Part shown: positions 27,947 to 64,000 of the stretch, one piece after another
Numbering within the stretch: position 1 is the first letter of the stretch
Layout of the letters: each line of letters opens with the position of its first letter
Source of the DNA: Echinarachnius parma
Taxonomy: Eukaryota > Echinodermata > Echinoidea > Clypeasteroida > Echinarachniidae
Reading direction: 5' to 3'
Assembly (NCBI GenBank): GCA_037951105.1
Contig: JBAMJV010001854.1
Location: 1 to 64,000 of the forward strand
Length of the DNA: 64,000 nucleotides
Notes under the pieces: model-generated
What the model was told of the DNA's origin: nothing
What the model saw: only the letters and a program-made list of their open reading frames with translations
The model's database searches: none
Program-made: the position numbers and the translations under genes

Positions 27947-28145
27947 AATAGACCGCTTCTGTAATGTATGCAAATATTATGCGTAGGACGTCAGACTCCC
28001 CGTTGGCAAGCTTAACAATAGTAACTATGTCCGGCAAGTTCCGGCAAACCTAGCTTGCCGGACCTAGTTACTATTGTTCAGCTTGCCAACGGAGAGTCTT
28101 ACGTCATACGCTTATTATTTGCATACATTACAGAAGCGGTCTATT
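27947..28145 (+). mobile_element. MITE-F copy 1 (hairpin)
   Basis: A near-perfect foldback bounded by AATAGACCGCTTCT and AGAAGCGGTCTATT, with about 92-bp arms meeting at a loop near TTCCGGCAAACC. The arms differ at about seven positions with no directional bias, so this copy serves as the unedited reference for copy 3. It lies in HAO intron 1. Confidence 0.85.
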
Positions 28146-30066: not shown

Positions 30067-30186
30067 CAGGGGCGTCGATCTGTTCGGAAAACACAATGCA
30101 TTGGGGGGGCGAGCATTGTTTGTGAACAATAGCTCGCCCCCCCCCCCCCAATGTATTGTGTTTTCCGGACTGATCGACGTCCCTGG
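30067..30186 (+). mobile_element. hAT-type mini hairpin with 8-bp target duplication
   Basis: 120 bp bounded by CAGGGGCGTCGATC and GATCGACGTCCCTG, flanked by a perfect 8-bp duplication GTTCACTT (30059-30066 and 30187-30194). CAGGG tips with 8-bp duplications are the hAT hallmark. The centre is a G-run paired with a C-run. Confidence 0.88.
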
Positions 30187-34617: not shown

Positions 34618-34911
34618 CCGTTGTCGGCACGCTGGCCCGCTAGCTGGCTCGTGAAGAGTATCCTACGAAACACATATGTAACGTACCCAAAATCAACTAA
34701 ATCTTCGAAAATTGCTCAAATAATGGTCATGATTTCAAAGTAGTTATCTTTTTTACCTGTTCTGTGTAACTTCTTTGAAATCATGACCATAATTTGAGCA
34801 ATGGTCGAAGATTTAGTTGATTTTGGGTACGTTACATTTGTGTTTTGTATGGTACTCTTCACGAGCGCGTCACGGGCAGCTAGCGGCGTAGCGTGCCGAC
34901 ACTGTGCGGGT
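34618..34911. repeat. Hairpin element 2 of a pair
   Basis: GTCGGCACGCTGGCCCGCTA pairs with TAGCGGCGTAGCGTGCCGAC, and inner arms CCCAAAATCAACTAAATCTT pair with AAGATTTAGTTGATTTTGGG. Arms are about 130 bp. Confidence 0.8.
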
Positions 34912-47350: not shown

Positions 47351-48043
47351 CTGTAATCAAATAAAAACCCACAAGAAATATTACAAATATGTATTTTTAA
47401 ATACAAATATGCAACAGCTACATGAACAAATCCTTAGCTTAGCCCGTTTAATGAACATTTAGTTACATGAAAAAGAAGTCAAGTAGTTCTAAAAAGTTCA
47501 TTAAAAGTTAATAGAAGTTCAATGATGCTTACATGGCAAAAACACATAAACGACTACGATACAGGGCTGGTGTCATTAGAAAATCAGCCGTTTGCGCAAA
47601 AAGGGGCGCGCTCCAGACACCTGAAATTCTCAACAAAAAATTAATTTAAAAAAAGGGGAATGTAATGTTTGGTTCAAATAATTATTCGGTAGAGAGCTCA
47701 TCAAAAAACAATTTTAAAGTATTTTCAAAAATATGTTCAACATTTTATTGCAATCTGATATATTCATTAATGTTTCAGCTGTTTCTGAACATTTTTTTCT
47801 CAAAGTTTATTCTGAGTTTTTAAATGTGTACTTTTTTCAAATACAATTCTCAGTTCTTTTCATAACCTTAGGCAAACAATATTTATCGAAGCTCCTCTAA
47901 ACCAAACTGCACTGTCCCTAGCTGTAGAAGTATATCGTGAGTCTTGTTTAGTAGTTATTTTGTTTCTCTAGTCGCGTTGGCGTACAAATAATCATTAGCA
48001 TGATAATTGTAGATGTTAGAGGCAGTTGATCAAATTAACTTAC

Positions 48044-51000
48044 CTTGATGTTTGGGGATCTTCTCCCTCGAAGAAGCGCGACTGTTGCAGCTCTTCCTTG
48101 TCACATATGCGGCATTTTCTCGGGCAGATTTCACCGCAGAGTCCGATGCAAGGGTGGCCACACTTTCGTTTCTTCGGACAGGGTTTGTCGCATGGAGGTC
48201 GGTTGCACGGCTCACAGCACAGGTTGGTGCACTCGTGGTGATCACATTTCCAGTTGCATCGCTTCATGCACACGTCACATGTATTACCGCACGAATCCTT
48301 GCACTGGGTGTGGCGGCAACGTCGGTTGCACTTATTGCGACAGAGAGAACACGGTATTCCACAGTTCTGAGGGCATCTGTGCCCACAGACAAGTTCCTTG
48401 TTGCATATCTCAGCGCAGCGTACATGGACCCCGCAGCGACACTGCCCACACGTACCCACGCACTCGTGTCCGCATTCCAGTTTAGCTGTGCACTTGATGT
48501 AGCACGACCCGGGTTCATCGCAGCAGCGAACAGTCACTAAATGTTTACATGGCCAGTCACTTCTAGTTATCGACTCCGTGCATTCCTTGCTACATGTTGT
48601 TCCGCAGATTTCTTGGCAGACGTGACCACATTGGAGTTTAAGCTTACATCTTTCGACACAAACGGCATCGTCCACTTCCGCTGAACATGCCATGATCTGG
48701 GTGTGACCACAATACAGCGTTGTCTTGACCTGCTCAACGCATTTGCCTTTCTTGAAGCACTTTTCTGTCAGTATGTGCCCGCACTCCAGTCGTTTGTCAG
48801 TCACGATTTTGCATTTCACAGCAGTTTCGTCGATGTGGCAGAAAAGGGTATGCTTGTGCTTACAAGGCAATTCTTTCACAACCTCTACGTGGCATTTGAC
48901 TTCTGACGAATTTGTACAACACTCCATCTGAGCGGTATGGTGACAAGAAAGTTCTCGTTCAACTTTTTCATAGCAGCGGCCTCTTTCCCGGCATTCCTCC
49001 GTCTTTGTGTGGCCACATTCAAGAGGCCTTTCAACCATGATTTTACATTCCTTGTCAAGACCTTCTGGACTCACATGGCACATGAGAAACCGTTTGTGGT
49101 TGCACTCAAGTGTTTTCTCTACCATTTCAGTGCACTCGATAGACATCACGCTTGTGGAGCACTTCGCCAGACACGTGTGACCACACGGCAACACTTTTTC
49201 AACCAGCACCGAACATGTGGCTGGACAAGGTTCGGAGCATTTCTTGGGGCATTTGTGCATTTCAGTACATATCAGCTGCATGCAAGGAGCCTTACACTTA
49301 TAAAGCGTATGATCTCGATCAATTGGATGACATTTCAACCGACAAACATGGCCACAGTCTAGTCGAGCATCACATGCTTTGTTGCATCCTCCTTCGGGAA
49401 CTTTGGTGAAATCTTCCGATACCTTCACTTCGGTCTTCTGGTCAGGGTGGTTGACACACTCAAGAACGAGCGATTTTCCTATGAGTTCATGGGACGCAAG
49501 ATCATTCACAATCCCTTTCCACATGTCGCTCTTTTTGGCAAAGAGTGTGAAGTTTCCGATGCAATACAGACCCTTCTTTGCCCTCGACAACGCAACGCAA
49601 ACTCGGTTCGAGGTCCCCAAGAAACCAATCTTTCCACCATCGTTACTCCTGACGAAAGAAAGAAGGATGATGTCATTCTCTTCCCCTTGGTAGTTATCGA
49701 CAGAAGCAACTCTAACACCTCGAAAGATGTCTCGTTTCATCATCTGTTTGAATTGCAGCAATTGACCAGTGTATGCTGTCAGGATGGTAATTTGATTCTG
49801 ACTGTATCCTTGTTGAAGAAGGTAGTTGCAAAGCCCAATCATTAACTTCACTTCGTGCAGGTTGAAATGGCTTTGCGTATCTTCCATGGCATCTTCTGGT
49901 TCTGTGTGGTCAATGAAGAATATATCCTTCTCCGTACCTTGTACACTACCATATTCCGTAACTGATTCGTGGTCGTGGAGGTTGTCGTAGAAGTGTCTCT
50001 TCATGATATCAGACAGTTCAACTCTCATGCGATGCTGAAGTTCCAGTTGGACGTATGGGAATCCGTTGTTGATTAGTCTTTCAAACAAAGACACATCAAG
50101 GTGATACTTCCTGGCGAGCATGTAGACGTTTGGCTTTGGTCGAAGTTGCTGATGGTCGCCTATGAGAATGAGTTGCTGACATGAGGCACTCAGTGACGTG
50201 ACTATGTGAGCTTCGAGTACTTCGGCCGCCTCTTCTACGATGACGATCTTTGGTTTGACTCTCTGGAGGACGTGTTGGTGATTAGCGGCTCCTGTCGTGG
50301 TCATACCTATGATGGTTGCTTCTTTGAGAATCTGATATTTCTCCACAGACCTTGCTTCCTCTAGCTGGGAGCATAGCTGTTTGAATGCAGTTTCGTGATG
50401 TTCAAGTTGTTTTTCTTGGTAGGCAACGTAGTTTTTCAGCCACACATGATATAGCGCCCATCGTTCATTCGATCGCAGTCGCCAGACATCGGAGATATTT
50501 GCCAACGTGTGATGGTCAATTTGATCAGTACCTTGCATCTTTTTCTGTAGGAACCGTTTCAGTTTGCGTACATTTGGCGTTTTCAACTCGTCAATGTCAA
50601 ACCCGAGAAAGATGTAGTCCTCGCCAATGTCAACCGTCTCTTCTTCATAATCTTCATCAATCATTCTCTCGGATTCTATCATCGCCCTCTCGTTTTCTAC
50701 ATCTACTACGGCAGGGCCGGTGTTGTCCTGTTTTGGCTCTTCCCTGCCACTGGTTTTGCCAGCTTCATCACTATCTGCTTCTACCTCTGCCTCTCTCGTG
50801 GCAGCTGCTTGAGCTTGGACTGTTTGATTTTCATCCCAATCGTCATCAGTCTGACACTCACAGAGTAACCACTCAACAAGCCAAGACTGTACTGGTTTGA
50901 GATTCCAAAGCCGCAAGAGACTGTTGTATTGATCCCAAGTCATGAAATGTCCAAGTTCGATCTCATTGATGATTCCATTCTTCGCCCCATGTAGCCTTGC

Positions 51001-53370
51001 CTGCGTTCTCTCGACTAAGATCTTGGCAGTGTCCACTTCTTTCTTGACGTGGCGAACTCTTCTCTTGATGATTTCCCCATCGTCTCTATTTCCCCTTCGA
51101 ACAAGGCGATTCAGATTGTATGGCTCCAATTCGGCACTCTTACTCCGACTTCCTACTCGAACTATGCCTGACGTGTGAAATTTAAGAATGCCTTCCAAGA
51201 ACTGATCAAGGGCGTGATTGGTGAAGCATACCAAGAGAATCGGTCCTGGGTCTTTGCTGTACCAAAGCGCCATATTTCCCAGAAGAATCTGCACTATCTT
51301 CAGCCCAATGTACGTCTTCCCTGTTCCAGGTGGTCCTTGGATGATCGACATTTCCTTAGTTAGAGCCGTTTTGACAGCTTCCAATTGCGACTCGTCCAGC
51401 TGCACCATGGTTCCAGATGGCCAGGTTGATTCATCTAGTACCGTCACGTGGCTGCGTTGCGAATCTTGACTGTATTCAGGTGTCATGATGGGTGAAATAT
51501 CCATGGTTGCTGGTCTTGCTTCCAGTTCGTCTTCAACAAAAAGGTCGTCGAAAAGAAAATGTCTTCGAACATTGACCCTTGGTGCTGGCATGGATGGGGT
51601 ATCAAAGATATAGGATGGTGCTTCTACATCCTTACATAGGTTCAGAGTGTACCGTGACAGTGGCAGCGAAGCGGTCGACATTCGTTGTAGTCCCAGAAGG
51701 ACGGGTCGATATGCCTCGAAGAACACTGTTGACTCTGCCATCACAAATGTTTGGTTCTGCAGACACGACGCATCATCGTGATCAACTAGTGAAATGGTGA
51801 TGCAGCCCTTCTCCAGGTTTTCCGCGTCCCGCTTAGCAACTGTTGCGAACAAATACGTCTTGAAGTCGTCGGATGATAACATCAGCAGAGATCCGAACAT
51901 GAGTCGTTTCGAAATTTGCCACCGTACATGTTTGAGCTTCTTGAATGACACGCAGTATGAGAGTCCAGAGAAATCACGTACAGCACCGACGTACTGAACG
52001 TCTTCGTAGATCCTAACTTCCGAGAGCCTTGCCCTTCGATCGGGATGTGCTTTCTTGAAGGCGAGGTATTCAGAAATACCTGCTCGTAGGGGATATATGA
52101 AATCTTCTTTCAAAAGCCTGAACTGTACGTCAAGGTAGTGGTCAGCATCAGCATACACTCCTCTTGTGAGATGAGGTCGTAGGAAAGGTTGGTATCCAGC
52201 CTCTAACTCTTTTGGTGTAGGAAGGACCGACTGTTGGCGGAAATCATCCGGTGGTGGGTTTTTACTCATTCGATCCACTTGTCGCTTGTGTTCTCTCTCT
52301 AGTTCAATCGTGTTGACTTGTTCGTTCAACTGTTTTACCAAGTCCAAAACTTCATCGCGGAAATGTGAATCCCCTAGTTCTGAAGCAGCATCGGACATGA
52401 ATGTAATAGCAACCTTTATGTCAGAAGCACGGCTTGGAAGGCTCTGAAGAACCACGTTGAATACGGCAATGACATTCCTAAATAGAGACTGTGCTTTGTC
52501 ATCCAATCCTGTGCATCCCGCGGTGCGCAGACGAACAAGAATCAAAGGAAGCTGGGTGCTGAGAAGCTTTGAGTGGACAACCATGGTCATCAGCATGTTC
52601 ACTGTTTCGGCCGCTCCAATGGTGTCACTGATAAAGGCGAGGACATTCCAGAAGAGATGCTGCCGCGTGTCGTCAATGCGTTCCTCATTCAGACCTGCTT
52701 CAAAGCACCCCTTGAGTGAACCTAGCTCGATCGCGGCTTCAGAGGGATCTTTGCGGAGTATTTCCATGAGTAGCCGTGTGCTGATAGGGTTGAAATTCCC
52801 TCGTCCCGATGATGTATATGACCTTCCACCGCTGGCGTCCTCTCTTCTACTGCCTCCCTGCCTTCTTCCTCCTCCTCCTCCTCCTCCTGCCCATCTGCCT
52901 CCTCCTCCAATACCTCTTTCCCCTCTTCCTCTTCCACCTCTCCCTCCTCCTCTATTCCCTTCTCCTCCTATCCCTCTTTCTTCTGTCCCTCTGCCGCCTC
53001 TTCTTCCTCCTCCCCCTCCTCCTCTATCATGATATTGTGTTTCTCGGCTCCCCCTTACATGGTTTGAACCTCTTCCCCTACCCGCATTTGAACTCCTGTC
53101 TCTCATCTCTCCATCGACTCTGTAGTCATAATCGCTCGTTCTTCTGCTATTCTCTCTCCATTGCCTCCCTTGATTTCTATCTCTGTCATAGTGTCTCTCT
53201 TCTCGTTCGTCTTGATCACGTTGCCTTCCTTCTTGCCATCTGGGCGCTCCTCCTCTTTGACCCCGTCCTCTTGCACTCCGACCCCTCGCGTTACCACCGG
53301 ACGGGTTCCCATGGTTACGTGTCTCTCGTCCCGCGTATTCCGCTTCGTCAGAGTAGTTTGCCCCAAACAT
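48044..53370 (-). CDS. ZNFX1: ZNFX1 (NFX1-type zinc-finger helicase), exon 1
   Basis: ZNFX1 is an SF1 RNA helicase with NFX1-type zinc fingers; in vertebrates it acts as a mitochondrion-associated dsRNA sensor and in nematodes in small-RNA inheritance. ATG 53370 has A at -3 and an in-frame TAA eight codons upstream. Residues 1-195 are a Gly/Arg-rich disordered tail. Residues about 195-370 are helical (ARM-like, starting ISTRLLMEILRKDPSEAAIE). The helicase core has Walker A GPPGTGKT at 679-686, motif II VEEAAEV near 1045-1051, motif III IGDHQQL near 1072, motif V DNYQGEENDI near 1227 and motif VI CVALSRA near 1257. Residues about 1320-1765 hold repeated Cys/His NFX1-type fingers (CGHxCxxxC spacing). 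An acidic insert with long Glu/Asp runs lies between motifs I and II. The exon ends ATCAAG|GTAAGT, leaving two bases. Confidence 0.96.
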
Positions 53371-53638
53371 CTTTGGTATACAGCTGTGGATTTAAATGGG
53401 ACAAAAACAAAACTTCTCTTTGTGATTAAATGGGCGCAAATTTAAATACGTCAATGAACTGCATTTTTCCCCCGTGAACTATAACAAGAGAAGGCACCGT
53501 TTGATACGATATGACCTGATGGAAACGTTCAGATTTCCGAACGATTAGCTAAAACTAGCAATGCATATCTTGTTTATGAAGCCTCCCTATTTGAAAACAT
53601 GTGAAGAGCTTAGCTGCTGTACATGCATTCTTGCTTCT

Positions 53639-57357: not shown

Positions 57358-57537
57358 AAGCAAATAATTTGCGTATGACGTAATACTCCACGTTGGCACT
57401 GTTTAACAATAGTAACTAGGTCCGGTAAGCTCCGGCATACTTATCTTGCCGAACCTAGTTACTATTGTTAAGTTTGCCAACGGGGAGTCTATACGTCATA
57501 CGAATATTATTTGCATACATCACAGAAGCGGTCTATT
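57358..57537 (+). mobile_element. MITE-F copy 2, left end truncated
   Basis: Same hairpin family with the right end AGAAGCGGTCTATT intact. The left arm lacks its outer 22 bp or so and abuts the end of the MITE-D element at 57130-57354. Differences from copy 1 show no A-to-G bias. Confidence 0.8.
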
Positions 57538-58730: not shown

Positions 58731-59329
58731 CCACCCCACTACTCGTCGTCCTCAGGTTTGCGAAAATACCGTAATATATACGCTAGTACCACCACGATTT
58801 TCCTGATTACTCGATTACGCGCAAATAATGTCGCCGCACGGGTTGAACCACTTTTGTTTCCAACTTTTCAATTATACCAAACTTACAAAACAAGGACCTA
58901 TCATTACTAAAATAAGGTAATGTGACATTTTGTCACTGGCACTGCAAGTCACGCCGAAAATTTGTAAATTTTGAGATTTATGTACAAAACAAAATCTTGT
59001 ATTTATTTATACATATTTTCGGGGGGTCAAAAATAATAGTTCCCTAACACAAATAAAATGAAACGATACAAACAATAAATACACACGAAATCTTCAAAAC
59101 AGTAGAAAACATAACTATTACGCAGGCTCTTCCCATTTTTTAAAAGCATTATTTTTCTGACTGGTCCGATGTAGTAAAAACAATGGTCATTCATCAGAAA
59201 TAAATGATTTATGAGCAAAATATGAACTGTATTATTTGCTTATGTAACCATACATATGTAAATTTGATACCGTGGCAATCGGGCGTTTCAAATTATAATC
59301 ATAATGATTTCCAATGTGTTATTTGGGTC

Positions 59330-61592
59330 AAGACTGAGTTTGTGAAAAAGGTTCTGGATAAAAATGTTCCTTCACTGTTCCTTAGGGATTAGTTAAAGAT
59401 ATGTCAGGGTGTTTGGTCAAAATAACGTGCAGGTGGAAATGGAGAGAAAAGATTCTGGTTGGTAAAGACCTTGTGGAATATTTTCTTTAATTGATTAGCA
59501 TTTTTTTAAAGCCAGTTGACTACCGCGTCTGGACTGAATAATCTTGTAAAAAGGTTTTAAAAGGGATAAGAGAGCTCACTCATTCTGAGTTTGTGAAAAA
59601 GGTTTTGGATACAAAGGTTCCTTTATTGTTCCTTAGGTATTAGTTAAAAATGACTCTGAATTGTGACATTCTTATAAGTGATGTATTAGAAGAATAGCGG
59701 GTTTAGTGAGACGGTTCAGCATCTTAATGTATTGTAAATTGTTTTTTTTTTAATGGGATAAAGAACGGTACTTAAACAAGTCAATAGACCGCTTCTGCAG
59801 TGTGTGTAGGTGGTATGCGTTGACGTCGGGGTCCCCGTTGGCGGGCTTGACGGTGGTGACTGGGTCCGGCAAGCTCAGGGTAATCTAGCTTGCCGGACCT
59901 AGTTGCCATTGTTGGGCTTGCCAGCGGGGAGTATTGCGTCATACGCGTATTGTTTGCATGCATTGCGGAGGCGGTCTATTATCTGATGAAGTCTCTTTAG
60001 GGGAATCCTTTTATTGAATGTTTGAAAAGCCAATCTAGTGACACCACGTCATGACTGAGTGATCTCTAAAAAGGGTTTCGAAATTGATGAAAGAGTTGGC
60101 TTAGTCATGCTTATTTTTTTTTAGAGAGGTATTAGAAGTGTGGAGTAGCCGTTTTAATTGTTGGTGTTTTTTGACACATGTCAAGCCAGTTTGCTACTAG
60201 GCCAGAATTGAGGGATTTCGGAAAGGGTTTTTGTAATTGAAAAAGGGAAAAAATGAAGGAAAAAGAAGAAAAAGGAGAAACTTTTGTTCATTGTTTCTTT
60301 TTGATTTTTTGAAAAAATGTATTACTTGAGTCTGAATTGTTGTTGTCACATTGGAGTTTTGACATTCTTATAAGTGATGTAATACAAGAATAGCGAGTGT
60401 TTTGTACTTCTTTCTATGAGACTATTCGAAAGTCCAATGTATTGTAAAGTTGTTTTTATTTATATAGATGTAACAGAGGGTATACGAGAGTAATTGAATG
60501 TCATTTAATGCTCTCACAAAATGGGATAGAGGGTCGTACTTATAAAATCCCTTAAATGGAGTATTGTCATTGAATGCTTGAAGAGACAAGGAATTTCTTT
60601 TTGATTTTGTGTAAAAGGCGGGAAATCTAATGGAAATGGTTAAAGTCGGCGGGTAATTGAACGCCGGATAGAAGTCTCATACAAGGGGATATGAAGTATT
60701 ATCAAGTGTAAACACGTCATTGTTTGTTTTGTTTTGTTTTTTTTTTTTTTTTATGAGACAATGTATTTGGTTTCTCTCTTGATTATGTAATTTTGTTTAC
60801 AGTCGTAGAAGGTTGTCTACTTGTTGAGACATCATGTCTGTTATTGGTTATTCAGGATTGAGGGTTTTTTTTCTTTTTGATTCCTTTCCGGTTTTTTTTT
60901 TAATAGAATGCTTAAAAAAAAAGCAAAAGTAGATTTCTTTTTAGATAGTGTTTTGGGCTTCCGATATAAGGGGGTATTGAAACAAAAGCGATTCGTATGA
61001 GTTATTTTAAAAGAAATACATGGAATTGGTAAATACTTTTGTTTGGAGTATAATGAATGCGAAGTGATGGAGAAAAGGGTTCAGTGCTTGACGAAAGGGT
61101 TCCTTCTAGCTGGAAATGCAGTGATTACCCTCGCAATCCCGAGGCATTTGGGGTTTGGCTACCTATTATAAGCCCCTATAGATTGGTGCAGTCTGATCTC
61201 GGTCAAGACTGAAGGATGTTAAAGAAAGGCAAAATTCAGTAGTGACGTGTTTTGTCTATTGTTTATTCTTATTTTTGTGTAGTGAAGGGGATGGGTGGCG
61301 GCTCATTCGGACGGTAGTTTATTATTATTCTTTTTTCGCACTTGGTGGTTCGATTCGATTTATTTGTTTTGTTCTTCTTTTTTCTTCTATGTATTGTTAT
61401 TCTTGTGACTGTTTAACTTTTTAAATTTCTTTTCCAAGGGGTATGGCGGTAGTTCCTCTTTTTTCATATTTTTGTGGTAACAGTCAGAATTATGAGGGTT
61501 ACTCTAAAGAAGTGTGTGTCCCCTTCTCATTACTCAGGTTATATTTAAATAGAAATGATGATAAAGTTTATATGTATTGATATTGATATATA
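59330..61592 (+). mobile_element. LINE 5' region with internal repeats
   Basis: Non-coding sequence leading into the LINE ORF. It contains diverged direct repeats: 59331-59400 resembles 59582-59645 (both contain GAGTTTGTGAAAAAGG), and 59654-59780 resembles 60358-60540 (both contain GACATTCTTATAAGTGATGT). Such repeated 5' units are common in LINE promoters. A hairpin MITE (59783-59980) interrupts the first long unit, and the second unit lacks it at the matching place. The 5' boundary of the element is not clear, and no ORF1 protein is visible. Confidence 0.65.
59783..59980 (+). mobile_element. MITE-F copy 3, hairpin with A-to-G hypermutation
   Basis: A 198-bp foldback element bounded by AATAGACCGC and GCGGTCTATT, the same family as 27947-28145 and 57358-57537. 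Aligned by eye with those copies it shows about 25 A-to-G changes on the plus strand spread over both arms and no G-to-A. When the left arm is compared with the reverse complement of the right arm, about 15 sites are G against A and 11 are T against C, none are the reverse, and only about 3 are other changes. It lies in the LINE's sense orientation. Confidence 0.85.
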
Positions 61593-64000
61593 ATGACGGA
61601 CTTTGATAATATATCGTTTAATTGTAATTTTGTATCCTTGAATGTTAAGGGAATAAGGGAAAGAACAAAAAGGGGTGGTATTTTATCTTGGTTACGAGAT
61701 AAACGAGTAGAAGTAGCTTTTTTGCAGGAGACTTACAGCACTAATGATGTTGAAGATGTATGGGGTTCTTTGTGGGATGGAACAATTTATTATAGCCATG
61801 GGACAAATCACAGTAGAGGGGTGGCGGTATTGATAGATTCTAAATTAGATATCCAGGTTCTTCAAGTGCGCAATGATAATGCAGGGAGATTTATTATTTT
61901 AGACTGTATTATTCAGGGATTAAGATTAATATTAATAAACGCGTATTTTCCAGTAAGAGGGAAATCAATGGAGCAGATTGAGTTTTTGAATAGTATTGAT
62001 AACAGTTTGGATACAATAAATGGTAATGGTAACCCAATAATTATGGGAGGGGATTTTAATATGATTTATAATGTTGATTTAGATTATTTGGGAAGTAATA
62101 AAAAAGAGGTACAGTCGATATTTCTTAAACACTTTGATAATTATAAGGATAAATGGACTTTATTAGATATTTGGCGGGGGAAAAATGGTTTAAAAAAACA
62201 ATATACGTTTAAACAAATTAACCCCTTTGTCCAAAGTCGTTTAGATTATTTTTTTATTTCATATAGTTTAGAACAAATTGTCTTAAAATGTAATATAATA
62301 CCATCAATTGCACCAGATCATTTTGCTGTTCAGTTACAATTTTATAATTTGCCTAATTTTTCAATTAAAGGTAAAGGTAGTTACTGGAAGTTCAATAATA
62401 GTTTATGTGGAGATGGGGAATTTATTAGACAGATGGAAGTGGAAATAGGGAGATTAAGAAATATATATGAAAAAGAAATTAAAGATGTAAGAGTGTATTG
62501 GGATTTTTTGAAAATGAAAATTAGCAATTTTATTAGGAAATTTTCTAAAGAAAAATCTAGAAAAAGGAAAGAAAAAGTTCAAAATCTGGAAAATGATATA
62601 AGTGTAATTGAAAAAGAATTGATAGAAAAGGTAGAAAAGGAAAAGGTTGATTTGTTGGAAAATAAAAGAATGGAGTTAAAAAAATGTTATGAATATATTA
62701 ATGAGGGTTTGAAAGTTCGATCTCGAGCATCATTTTATGAGAGAGGGGAACAAAATACTAAATATTTTGTGCAACTAATGGAAGCAAATAAAAAGAAGAC
62801 AATTATAAGTAAATTATTAGTAGATGGAGGAAAAATAAGTTTTGATATGGATATTATTATTCGGGAAATACAAAGGTTTTATGCTGGATTATATTCCAAA
62901 TTTGTTGTTGATGTAGAATTATTTAATGAAAGTTTATTTTTTAAAGGTTTGCCAAAATTAGGTTTAGAATCAAAGGAAATTTGCGAAGGTAATATAACTC
63001 AAGGGGAATGTATAGCGGTTTTAAAAGAAATGAAAGGTAATAAGTCACCCGGAAACGATGGTCTTAGTGTAGAGTTTTATGAATTATTTTGGCCTGTTAT
63101 TGGTGATATTGTGGTAAGGGCTTTAAATGAAGCATTTGTTAAAGAAGAATTATCTTCTTCACAAAAACAAGCTATTATAATATTGATTCAAAAGGAAGAT
63201 AAAGACCCCTTACAAATAACAAATTACAGGCCTATATCATTATTAAATGTAGATTACAAAATTTTAGCTAAGATATTGTCTGTTCGGATTAAAAAAGTAT
63301 TAGGGGAACTTATTAGTATAGATCAGGTAGGATATTTAAAAGGGAGAAATATCGGTGAGGCTATAAGATTGATAGACGATATGATTTTCTATACTAAAAC
63401 AAATAATATACCAGGGTTTTTATTAGCCATTGACTTTAAAAAGGCTTTTGATACTGTTTCTCATGATTTTTTGCAAAATGTGTTAAAGACGTTTGGTTTT
63501 GGGACTTCATTTTGTAAATGGGTTCGTACACTCTACAAGGGCGCTCAGAGTTGTGTATTTAACGGCAATGTATCGACTGGTTATTTTAATATTATGAAAG
63601 GGGTAAGGCAGGGAGACCCCTTATCACCCTATTTATTTATATTATGTATAGAAACTTTAGCACGCTCGATTAGGACCGACAATGAAATTTCAGGGTTTAT
63701 TTTGGGAAATGCACATATTAAACAAGTATTATACGCAGACGATATGACGCTTTTTGTAAAAGATAAAGATTCGTTGATAAAATTAAATGAAAAATTTGAA
63801 ACTTTTGCTATAATATCGGGATTACAAATTAATCGAGACAAAACATATGTTTTGTTATTAGGCCCTCTTCATGGAAAAGAAATTGTAACTCCTTTTGGTA
63901 CAAAAGTTGGGATGATTAAAATATTAGGTGTATATTTTTCTATGGACCCTGAAGTTCGAGAAAGAATGAATTATAAAGAAATTTTAAGTAAAATTAAACA
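61593..64000 (+). CDS. LINE endonuclease-reverse transcriptase ORF (Tx1/L1-like), partial
   Basis: This ATG opens a frame with no stop through the window end (802 codons read). The APE-type endonuclease comes first: SLNVKG, FLQETY, SRGVAVL, INAYFPV, GGDFN near residue 153, SRLDYFFIS and PDHFAV. A charged linker follows (about 290-360). The reverse transcriptase has GNKSPGNDGL, NYRPISLLN near 545, AIDFKKAFDTV near 614, GVRQGDPLSP and the catalytic YADD near 713. All catalytic motifs are present, so the copy looks intact as far as it can be read. The pattern fits L1/Tx1-group LINEs of marine invertebrates. The C-terminal CCHC-like zf-RVT domain would lie beyond 64000; a related copy shows it at 32007-32477. 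No ORF1 was found upstream. Confidence 0.93.
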   Translation, partial: MTDFDNISFNCNFVSLNVKGIRERTKRGGILSWLRDKRVEVAFLQETYSTNDVEDVWGSLWDGTIYYSHGTNHSRGVAVLIDSKLDIQVLQVRNDNAGRFIILDCIIQGLRLILINAYFPVRGKSMEQIEFLNSIDNSLDTINGNGNPIIMGGDFNMIYNVDLDYLGSNKKEVQSIFLKHFDNYKDKWTLLDIWRGKNGLKKQYTFKQINPFVQSRLDYFFISYSLEQIVLKCNIIPSIAPDHFAVQLQFYNLPNFSIKGKGSYWKFNNSLCGDGEFIRQMEVEIGRLRNIYEKEIKDVRVYWDFLKMKISNFIRKFSKEKSRKRKEKVQNLENDISVIEKELIEKVEKEKVDLLENKRMELKKCYEYINEGLKVRSRASFYERGEQNTKYFVQLMEANKKKTIISKLLVDGGKISFDMDIIIREIQRFYAGLYSKFVVDVELFNESLFFKGLPKLGLESKEICEGNITQGECIAVLKEMKGNKSPGNDGLSVEFYELFWPVIGDIVVRALNEAFVKEELSSSQKQAIIILIQKEDKDPLQITNYRPISLLNVDYKILAKILSVRIKKVLGELISIDQVGYLKGRNIGEAIRLIDDMIFYTKTNNIPGFLLAIDFKKAFDTVSHDFLQNVLKTFGFGTSFCKWVRTLYKGAQSCVFNGNVSTGYFNIMKGVRQGDPLSPYLFILCIETLARSIRTDNEISGFILGNAHIKQVLYADDMTLFVKDKDSLIKLNEKFETFAIISGLQINRDKTYVLLLGPLHGKEIVTPFGTKVGMIKILGVYFSMDPEVRERMNYKEILSKIK

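What the first reader, a model, noticed from the sequence alone, without database searches (positions are those of the whole stretch)
59783..59980. Genomic A-to-G hypermutation scar in a hairpin inside a LINE 5' region
Seen: this MITE-F copy differs from its sister copies (27947, 57358) by about 25 A-to-G changes on the plus strand, in both arms, with no G-to-A and only two or so T-to-C. The test within the copy is stronger: left arm versus reverse complement of right arm gives about 15 G/A and 11 T/C mismatches, all in the direction expected from A-to-G on one strand, none reversed, and about 3 others. Copy 1 arms differ at about 7 sites with no such class. Known: ADAR deaminates A in long RNA duplexes and disfavours A after G. 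Inference: the LINE transcript, carrying the MITE as a hairpin in its 5' region, was hyperedited, and the edited RNA was reverse-transcribed. The hypermutated strand is the LINE sense strand, as this requires. A heritable copy of an RNA-editing event in a LINE would be unusual.
Basis: partly seen in the sequence, partly recalled or inferred. Interest (0 to 1): 0.92.

Follow-up and report, generated by a model that had tools for sequence, protein, structure and literature searches.

The report
RNA-editing scar inherited by a LINE
A jumping gene in what looks like a sea-urchin-type genome carries a folded RNA hairpin in which about half of the A's have become G's, as an RNA-editing enzyme would do; copying the edited RNA back into DNA has made the edits heritable, and new edits still seem to be added.

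Summary
The hairpin at 59783-59980 differs from its relatives by 27 A>G of 55 A's, 0 G>A, 2 T>C and 2 C>T; arm against arm the count is 27 to 0. The G states are derived: 20 more MITE copies are unedited. Every judged copy has at least 23 of 25 shared A>G changes; the window copy has two more. Editing seems to continue. In 36 insertions judged independent, A>G is 14 times commoner in the hairpin than in the LINE flanks (10/1112 against 15/23132 A's, p=7e-8); only T>C is also mildly raised; 4 of 5 hairpin A>G sites recur against 0 of 15 in the flanks. The 5' neighbours follow the ADAR order A/T > C > G. Best explanation: ADAR edits the LINE RNA hairpin and reverse transcription fixes the edits. 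The longest Watson-Crick run is 13 pairs, against 55 in the inferred ancestor, so the lineage may be hard-wired against dsRNA sensing; that is inference. No RNA data; the ADAR gene search did not complete.

The parts
59311..64000 (+). LINE copy (L1-like), 5'-truncated at about 59311, running off the window end
   Evidence: homology to other family copies begins here; endonuclease-type and RT domains downstream
59334..59651 (+). repeated 5'-region units of the LINE (59334-59400 and 59585-59651 are 90% alike; repeats about 370-380 bp apart in fuller copies)
59783..59980 (+). A-to-G hypermutated palindromic MITE carried as a hairpin in the LINE 5' region
59783..59879 (+). left arm of the hairpin; 16 G/A sites in the arm comparison
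59880..59883 (+). predicted terminal loop
59884..59980 (+). right arm of the hairpin; 11 T/C sites in the arm comparison (A>G on the + strand of this arm)
59852..59852 (+). extra A>G of this copy (hairpin position 70); the family majority has A
59936..59936 (+). extra A>G of this copy (hairpin position 154); also in L013
61590..63998 (+). open ORF2 (endonuclease/exonuclease/phosphatase-type and reverse transcriptase domains), continues past the window
27947..28145 (+). unedited sister MITE; no other match to the LINE stretch 59000-64000 there
57371..57537 (+). second unedited sister MITE, truncated at its left end

Best explanation
A palindromic MITE of about 198 bp jumped into the 5' untranslated part of an L1-like LINE. 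From then on each LINE transcript folded there into a long, nearly perfect RNA hairpin. The host A-to-I editing enzyme (ADAR) deaminated about half of the adenosines of one such transcript or of a few in succession. LINE reverse transcriptase read inosine as G and put the edited version into the genome. That edited element founded the present family of 44 found copies. New transcripts are still edited at a low rate at remaining A's, so some new copies carry further A>G at hot spots. Shown here: the A>G strand bias, its restriction to the hairpin, the derived polarity, the carriage through separate LINE insertions, the excess of A>G within the family and its recurrence. Inferred: that ADAR is the enzyme, that the recurrence is new editing and not recombination, and whether the 25 founder changes came in one burst or in steps.
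For: 27 of 55 A's changed to G against 0 G>A; arms 27 to 0. 25 changes in the family majority; 24 of them lie in the predicted duplex, 22 now as G-U pairs and 2 opposite a changed C. 44 copies with the hairpin at one LINE position and several different 5' truncation points, so the hairpin was in the reverse-transcribed RNA. In 36 insertions judged independent A>G is 10/1112 in the hairpin against 15/23132 in the LINE flanks; G>A 1/2482 against 22/18440; C>T 1/1508 against 46/9003; without the window copy 8/1081 against 15/22453, p=5e-6. Recurrence: 4 of 5 hairpin A>G sites, 0 of 15 flank A>G sites, 0 of 11 other hairpin sites; sites 17/90 and 90/154 show all four combinations. 5' neighbours of the 25 fixed sites and 26 unedited A's: A/T 21 of 34 edited, C/G 4 of 17, p=0.017; trend p=0.007 (counts taken by hand). 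20 MITE copies outside the LINE: no A>G against copy 27947-28145; 0/1100 against 10/1112, p=0.002, same p with L054, the other haplotype of that copy, left out (0/1045). Precedent in passages read: about 200-bp palindromic Harbinger repeats are the most RNA-hyper-edited repeats of Xenopus, and hyper-editing is found in purple sea urchin (PMC5625713).
Against: No RNA data. The search for the ADAR domain (PF02137) in this genome did not complete (13 tries, first, last). 5' G depletion alone is borderline on the 25 family sites (1/25 against 6/26, p=0.055). No 3'-neighbour preference is seen, though invertebrate ADARs favour A there (PMC5625713). T>C is also mildly raised in the hairpin (4/2012 against 12/29622, p=0.016), which sense-strand editing does not predict. 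L049 has A at two founder-edited sites while sharing two later G's with other copies, so recombination among copies may explain part of the recurrence. The 36 copies were those most like the window hairpin; the 4 other copies, left out of that count, add 4 A>G but also 3 G>A, several C changes and indels. The 20 MITE controls are among the ones most like copy 1 and so carry few changes of any kind.
Confidence: 0.9

Rival explanations
1. The LINE needs an RNA hairpin here; over time only changes that keep pairing (A-U to G-U, G-C to G-U) were tolerated, so G-U pairs built up by ordinary mutation and selection.
For: Nearly all fixed A>G sites are still paired on the sense strand (24 of 25); the + strand still folds at -153 kcal/mol.
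Against: C>T at G-C pairs is just as tolerable but is rare: 2 in the window copy, and 1/1508 among copies, below the flank rate of 46/9003. Selection cannot lift A>G 14-fold above the flank rate in young copies (inference).
Confidence: 0.05
2. The reverse transcriptase misreads while passing the hairpin.
For: The excess is confined to the structured stretch.
Against: Only A>G (and mildly T>C) is raised; changes other than A>G are rarer in the hairpin than in the flanks (11 of 7114 cells against 224 of 80197). About half of all A's changed in the founder, with an ADAR-like neighbour order.
Confidence: 0.03
3. Deamination acted on DNA (ADAR on an RNA:DNA hybrid or other transcription-linked damage), not on RNA.
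For: Could add T>C on the + strand (4/2012 against 12/29622) if cDNA in the hybrid were hit.
Against: LINE flanks, which should be transcribed with the hairpin, are not affected, and MITE copies outside the LINE are not affected. The changes follow the RNA hairpin and the sense strand.
Confidence: 0.04
4. One founder editing event only; later shared A>G sites are inherited or recombined subfamily markers, with no continuing editing.
For: 25 changes are shared by practically all copies; A>G sites 17, 68, 90 and 154 are each shared by 2 to 5 copies; L049 looks like a mosaic; 23 of 169 other flank sites are also shared (10 of 135 with homopolymer neighbourhoods masked).
Against: The copies sharing an A>G share few or no other markers. 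0 of 11 other hairpin sites and 0 of 15 flank A>G sites are shared, and two site pairs fail the four-gamete test. The A>G excess is present by sites too (5 of 31 A columns against 15 of 684, p=0.001).
Confidence: 0.15

Closest known systems
RNA hyper-editing of palindromic ~200-bp Harbinger repeats in Xenopus (PMC5625713, passages read)
   Same: A self-complementary DNA-transposon repeat of about 200 bp, edited at many A's, with G depleted upstream of sites across the species studied.
   Different: There the edits are seen in RNA reads over a genomic A; here the changes are in the genome, fixed in a retrotransposon family.
APOBEC hypermutation of retroelements ('DNA editing'; PMC2873906, passages read)
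   Same: A host deaminase leaves clustered one-class changes in inserted retroelements.
   Different: There G>A from deaminated minus-strand cDNA; here A>G in an RNA hairpin. That survey saw no excess of A-to-G/T-to-C clusters in high-quality DNA traces of human and Xenopus.
ADAR-type A-to-G hypermutation of viral RNAs (viral cases listed in PMC6757416, passages read; a retrovirus case is recalled, not looked up)
   Same: Edited RNA enters the replication cycle and A>G clusters persist.
   Different: Here it is a host-genome LINE whose edited form has multiplied in the germ line.
L1-like LINEs
   Same: Endonuclease-type plus reverse transcriptase domains; best solved relatives are LINE-1 ORF2 proteins.
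   Different: Carries a MITE hairpin in the 5' region; no long ORF1 found, only a 127-aa ORF just before ORF2 in three other copies examined.

Membership tests
ADAR A-to-I hyper-editing cluster | A>G far above all other classes, on one strand | tested here: met
   27 A>G, 0 G>A, 2 T>C, 2 C>T; arms 27 to 0
ADAR A-to-I hyper-editing cluster | changes lie in a long RNA duplex, not beside it | tested here: met
   24 of 25 fixed sites are paired; hairpin 10/1112 against flanks 15/23132
ADAR A-to-I hyper-editing cluster | G depleted 5' of edited A; A/U > C > G | tested here: met
   5' G: 1 of 27 edited against 6 of 24 unedited in the window copy, p=0.034, and 1 of 25 against 6 of 26 for the family, p=0.055; A/T 21/34, C/G 4/17, p=0.017; trend p=0.007
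ADAR A-to-I hyper-editing cluster | 3' neighbour preference (A in invertebrates) | tested here: inconclusive
   edited/all by 3' base: T 7/15, A 7/12, G 7/12, C 6/12
ADAR A-to-I hyper-editing cluster | A/G mixture in RNA over a genomic A | not testable with these tools
   no RNA reads of this animal
ADAR A-to-I hyper-editing cluster | ADAR gene in the genome | not tested
   PF02137 search asked 13 times, never answered; urchin ADARs are mentioned in PMC5625713
L1-like LINE | endonuclease and reverse transcriptase domains in one ORF | tested here: met
   PF03372 and PF00078; LINE-1 ORF2 structures best matches
L1-like LINE | ORF1 | tested here: inconclusive
   no + strand ORF of 80 aa or more between 59311 and 61586 in the window copy; a 127-aa ORF just before ORF2 in L024, L031 and L044, its nature not tested
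L1-like LINE | copies with differing 5' truncation | tested here: met
   5' ends of homology at -31, -85, -221, -471, -605, -944 from the hairpin and further out
L1-like LINE | 3' end, poly-A and target site duplication | not tested
   copy runs off the window; 3' ends not fetched
MITE | short, palindromic, non-coding, many near-identical copies in unrelated flanks | tested here: met
   1884 first-look candidates, 40 scored, at 98-100%; 20 fetched, 19 with flanks of their own and L054 in the same flank as 27947-28145
MITE | target site duplication | tested here: not met
   none seen by eye in the 15-bp flanks of 20 copies; superfamily unresolved

The most novel reading that the evidence does not exclude
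The edited hairpin is an adaptation that the LINE acquired from its host. Editing wrote about 22 of its 24 G-U pairs into the element, and its longest Watson-Crick run is 13 pairs against 55 in the inferred pre-editing form and 30 in MITE copy 27947-28145. The element's RNA is then born already 'self-marked' and escapes dsRNA sensors, small-RNA cleavage and further editing, and this lineage is the one that multiplied (a left-junction search with up to 3 mismatches found only edited copies, with 47 and 62; an exact empty-site pattern found none). The same hairpin works as a germ-line recorder of ADAR activity: each new insertion stores the edits its RNA carried.
Probability: 0.25. Interest if true: 0.95.

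Novelty: new variant of a known kind. Interest (0 to 1): 0.86.

Why it matters
It is a case, with an internal control, of RNA editing entering the heritable genome through a retrotransposon: the same hairpin is unedited in the MITE copies outside the LINE and edited where it moves as LINE RNA. It makes testable whether ADAR edits LINE RNA in the germ line, how much per retrotransposition, and whether edits hard-wired as G-U pairs help an element avoid dsRNA sensing. It also gives a method: scan palindromes inside retrotransposons for one-sided G-U mismatches between the arms.

Tried and rejected
Rejected: a G-rich MITE subfamily as ancestor (20 more copies unedited, and arm asymmetry); reverse-transcriptase error and pairing-only selection; chance among inverted repeats. 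A first version of that script gave an empty result, probably because its BLAST scoring was not accepted, and was re-run.

Led nowhere: MITE pattern in viral contigs and genome contigs, 0 matches each; LINE ORF2 in viral contigs, no confirmed relative; LINE region against phage records, none. Pattern for the empty LINE site (exact, gap 0-14) gave 0 matches. The right-junction pattern and PF02137 in the own genome did not complete. The species was not identified; the best named hits of the ZNFX1-type protein are sea urchins, so 'sea-urchin-type' is inference. A first reading that L047 keeps an ancestral A at a founder-edited site was wrong (position 47 is ancestrally G) and is not used. A first statement that the LINE has no ORF1 was softened. 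A comparison of fixed with later changes (25 A>G to 6 others against 10 to 11, p=0.018) depends on leaving out the central stretch 94-104, where the ancestor is uncertain; with it (25 to 12) p=0.17, so it is not used as support. Paper searches for a published genomic ADAR scar in a retroelement: (listings and starts of abstracts; passages only of PMC2873906, PMC5625713, PMC6757416 and PMC5974252); none that I saw described it, in this open-licence library only.

Full report
What is there. Window 59783-59980 is a palindromic element (a MITE by structure) of 198 bp lying in the 5' region of an L1-like LINE on the + strand. ORF2 (endonuclease-type and reverse transcriptase domains) runs open from 61590 past the window end. 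The LINE copy is 5'-truncated at about 59311, where its homology to other copies starts. The genome is 1.2 Gb in 14,790 contigs. The best named relatives of the ZNFX1-type protein at 48043-53391 are sea urchins, so an echinoid is likely; the species is not known.

The observation. Against the two sister copies in the window (with both orientations of each, and its own reverse complement) the element shows 27 A>G of 55 A's, 0 G>A, 2 T>C, 2 C>T and 8 others. Arm against arm, which needs no outgroup, there are 16 G/A and 11 T/C differences, none reversed, 4 other mismatches and 2 gaps. Among the 39 other inverted-repeat rows with arms under 3 kb apart nothing comparable appears. Twenty more MITE copies from the genome, 19 in flanks of their own and one (L054) in the same flank as the window copy at 27947, carry the A states. 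At sites where both orientations of their consensus agree, the LINE hairpin shows 23 A>G, 2 T>C, 2 C>T and 2 others. The G's are therefore derived.

A family, not one copy. A search with the hairpin gave 40 scored copies at 98-100% identity, of 749 first-look candidates. A left-junction pattern with up to 3 mismatches gave 43 places, 39 exact and 4 with one mismatch; the reversed control pattern gave 6. Together these are 44 copies, all fetched, and all have the hairpin between the same LINE flanks (in L042 the left flank has lost some bases, L034 and L049 keep only about 31 bases of it). Different 5' truncation points show separate retrotransposition events. Four pairs are judged the same locus on two contigs, at 99.9-100% identity over the fetched stretch: L009/L048, L010/L012, L015/L026, L016/L017. 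Twenty-five A>G changes are common to the family majority. L049 has A at two of these sites (71 and 185). L052 has several indels and was kept. The window copy has two further A>G.

Editing seems to go on. For 36 insertions judged independent (the 40 less one of each same-locus pair; the 4 short extra loci were not in this count), A>G is 10/1112 A-cells in the hairpin and 15/23132 in the LINE flanks (p=7e-8). G>A is 1/2482 against 22/18440 and C>T 1/1508 against 46/9003. T>C is 4/2012 against 12/29622 (p=0.016), a mild excess that I cannot explain. By sites it is 5 of 31 A columns against 15 of 684 (p=0.001). Two of the 10 A>G belong to the window copy itself; without it 8/1081 against 15/22453, p=5e-6. 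Four of 5 hairpin A>G sites occur in two or more insertions; 0 of 15 flank A>G sites and 0 of 11 other hairpin sites do, while 23 of 169 other flank sites do (10 of 135 with homopolymer neighbourhoods masked). Copies that share an A>G share few or no other markers. Site pairs 17/90 and 90/154 show all four combinations. The four extra copies add A>G at 2 (L051), 17 and 90 (L049) and 90 (L050), but also G>A at 71 and 185 (L049) and 74 (L051), C changes in L050 and L052, and indels in L051 and L052. Recombination could produce part of this, so recurrence is strong but not proven.

Enzyme. The 5' neighbours of the 25 fixed sites and 26 unedited A's: A/T 21 of 34 edited, C/G 4 of 17 (p=0.017); one-sided trend A/T > C > G p=0.007; 5' G alone p=0.055. 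For the window copy, 5' G is 1 of 27 against 6 of 24 (p=0.034). No 3' preference is seen. The MITE copies outside the LINE have no A>G against copy 27947-28145 (20 copies; 20 x 55 A's, 0/1100 against 10/1112, p=0.002; p=0.002 also without L054). They were taken from the 40 most similar copies and so carry few changes of any kind. In the copies examined, the hairpin is edited where it travels as LINE RNA and unedited elsewhere.

Structure. The inferred pre-editing hairpin pairs 53 A-U, 41 G-C and 0 G-U; the family form has 28 A-U, 40 G-C and 24 G-U. The longest Watson-Crick run is 55 pairs in the inferred form, 13 in the family form and 30 in MITE copy 27947-28145. Two fixed T>C changes (positions 16 and 125) lie exactly opposite edited G's and make G-C pairs; with two cases this may be chance.

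Burst or steps. No half-edited older copy was found by the left-junction search and no exact empty site, so burst and steps cannot be told apart. A comparison of fixed with later changes is not robust (p=0.018 or 0.17, depending on the central stretch).

What is known. RNA hyper-editing of about 200-bp palindromic Harbinger repeats is described for Xenopus and hyper-editing for purple sea urchin (PMC5625713, passages). A survey of DNA traces found APOBEC-type clusters in retroelements but no ADAR-type excess in high-quality DNA traces of human and Xenopus (PMC2873906, passages). In seven paper searches (listings) I saw no report of an ADAR scar fixed in a LINE family; most subscription papers are not in that library.

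Noticed in passing
30067-30185 and 34622-34901: Two other palindromes whose arms differ by one-sided G-U mismatches on the + strand (5 to 0 and 6 to 0); weak, but candidates for the same process.
   Followed up: no
L048 against L009, and 27947-28145 against L054: Contigs C1853 and C8703 look like two haplotypes or a duplication of the same region (99.93% over the LINE copy and its flanks; same MITE flank).
   Followed up: partly
59311-61586; L024, L031, L044: The LINE has repeated 5' units and, in three other copies examined, a 127-aa ORF just before ORF2 that is only 75 aa long in the window copy (61197-61421).
   Followed up: partly
hairpin positions 128, 130, 166, 177 in L033, L041, L038, L044: Single T>C changes, mildly more frequent than in the flanks (4/2012 against 12/29622); could be editing of antisense RNA or of cDNA.
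   Followed up: no
27947-28145 and 20 genome copies (L053-L072): The MITE shows no target site duplication by eye; superfamily unresolved.
   Followed up: partly
61590-63998: The nearest ORF2 relative in the protein search is an unnamed ENA protein at 92% identity (P0001); the next are at 55-56%.
   Followed up: no
48043-53391 (-): Long open ORF (1783 aa) with ZNFX1-type helicase domains and an RGG-rich start; best named matches sea urchins.
   Followed up: partly
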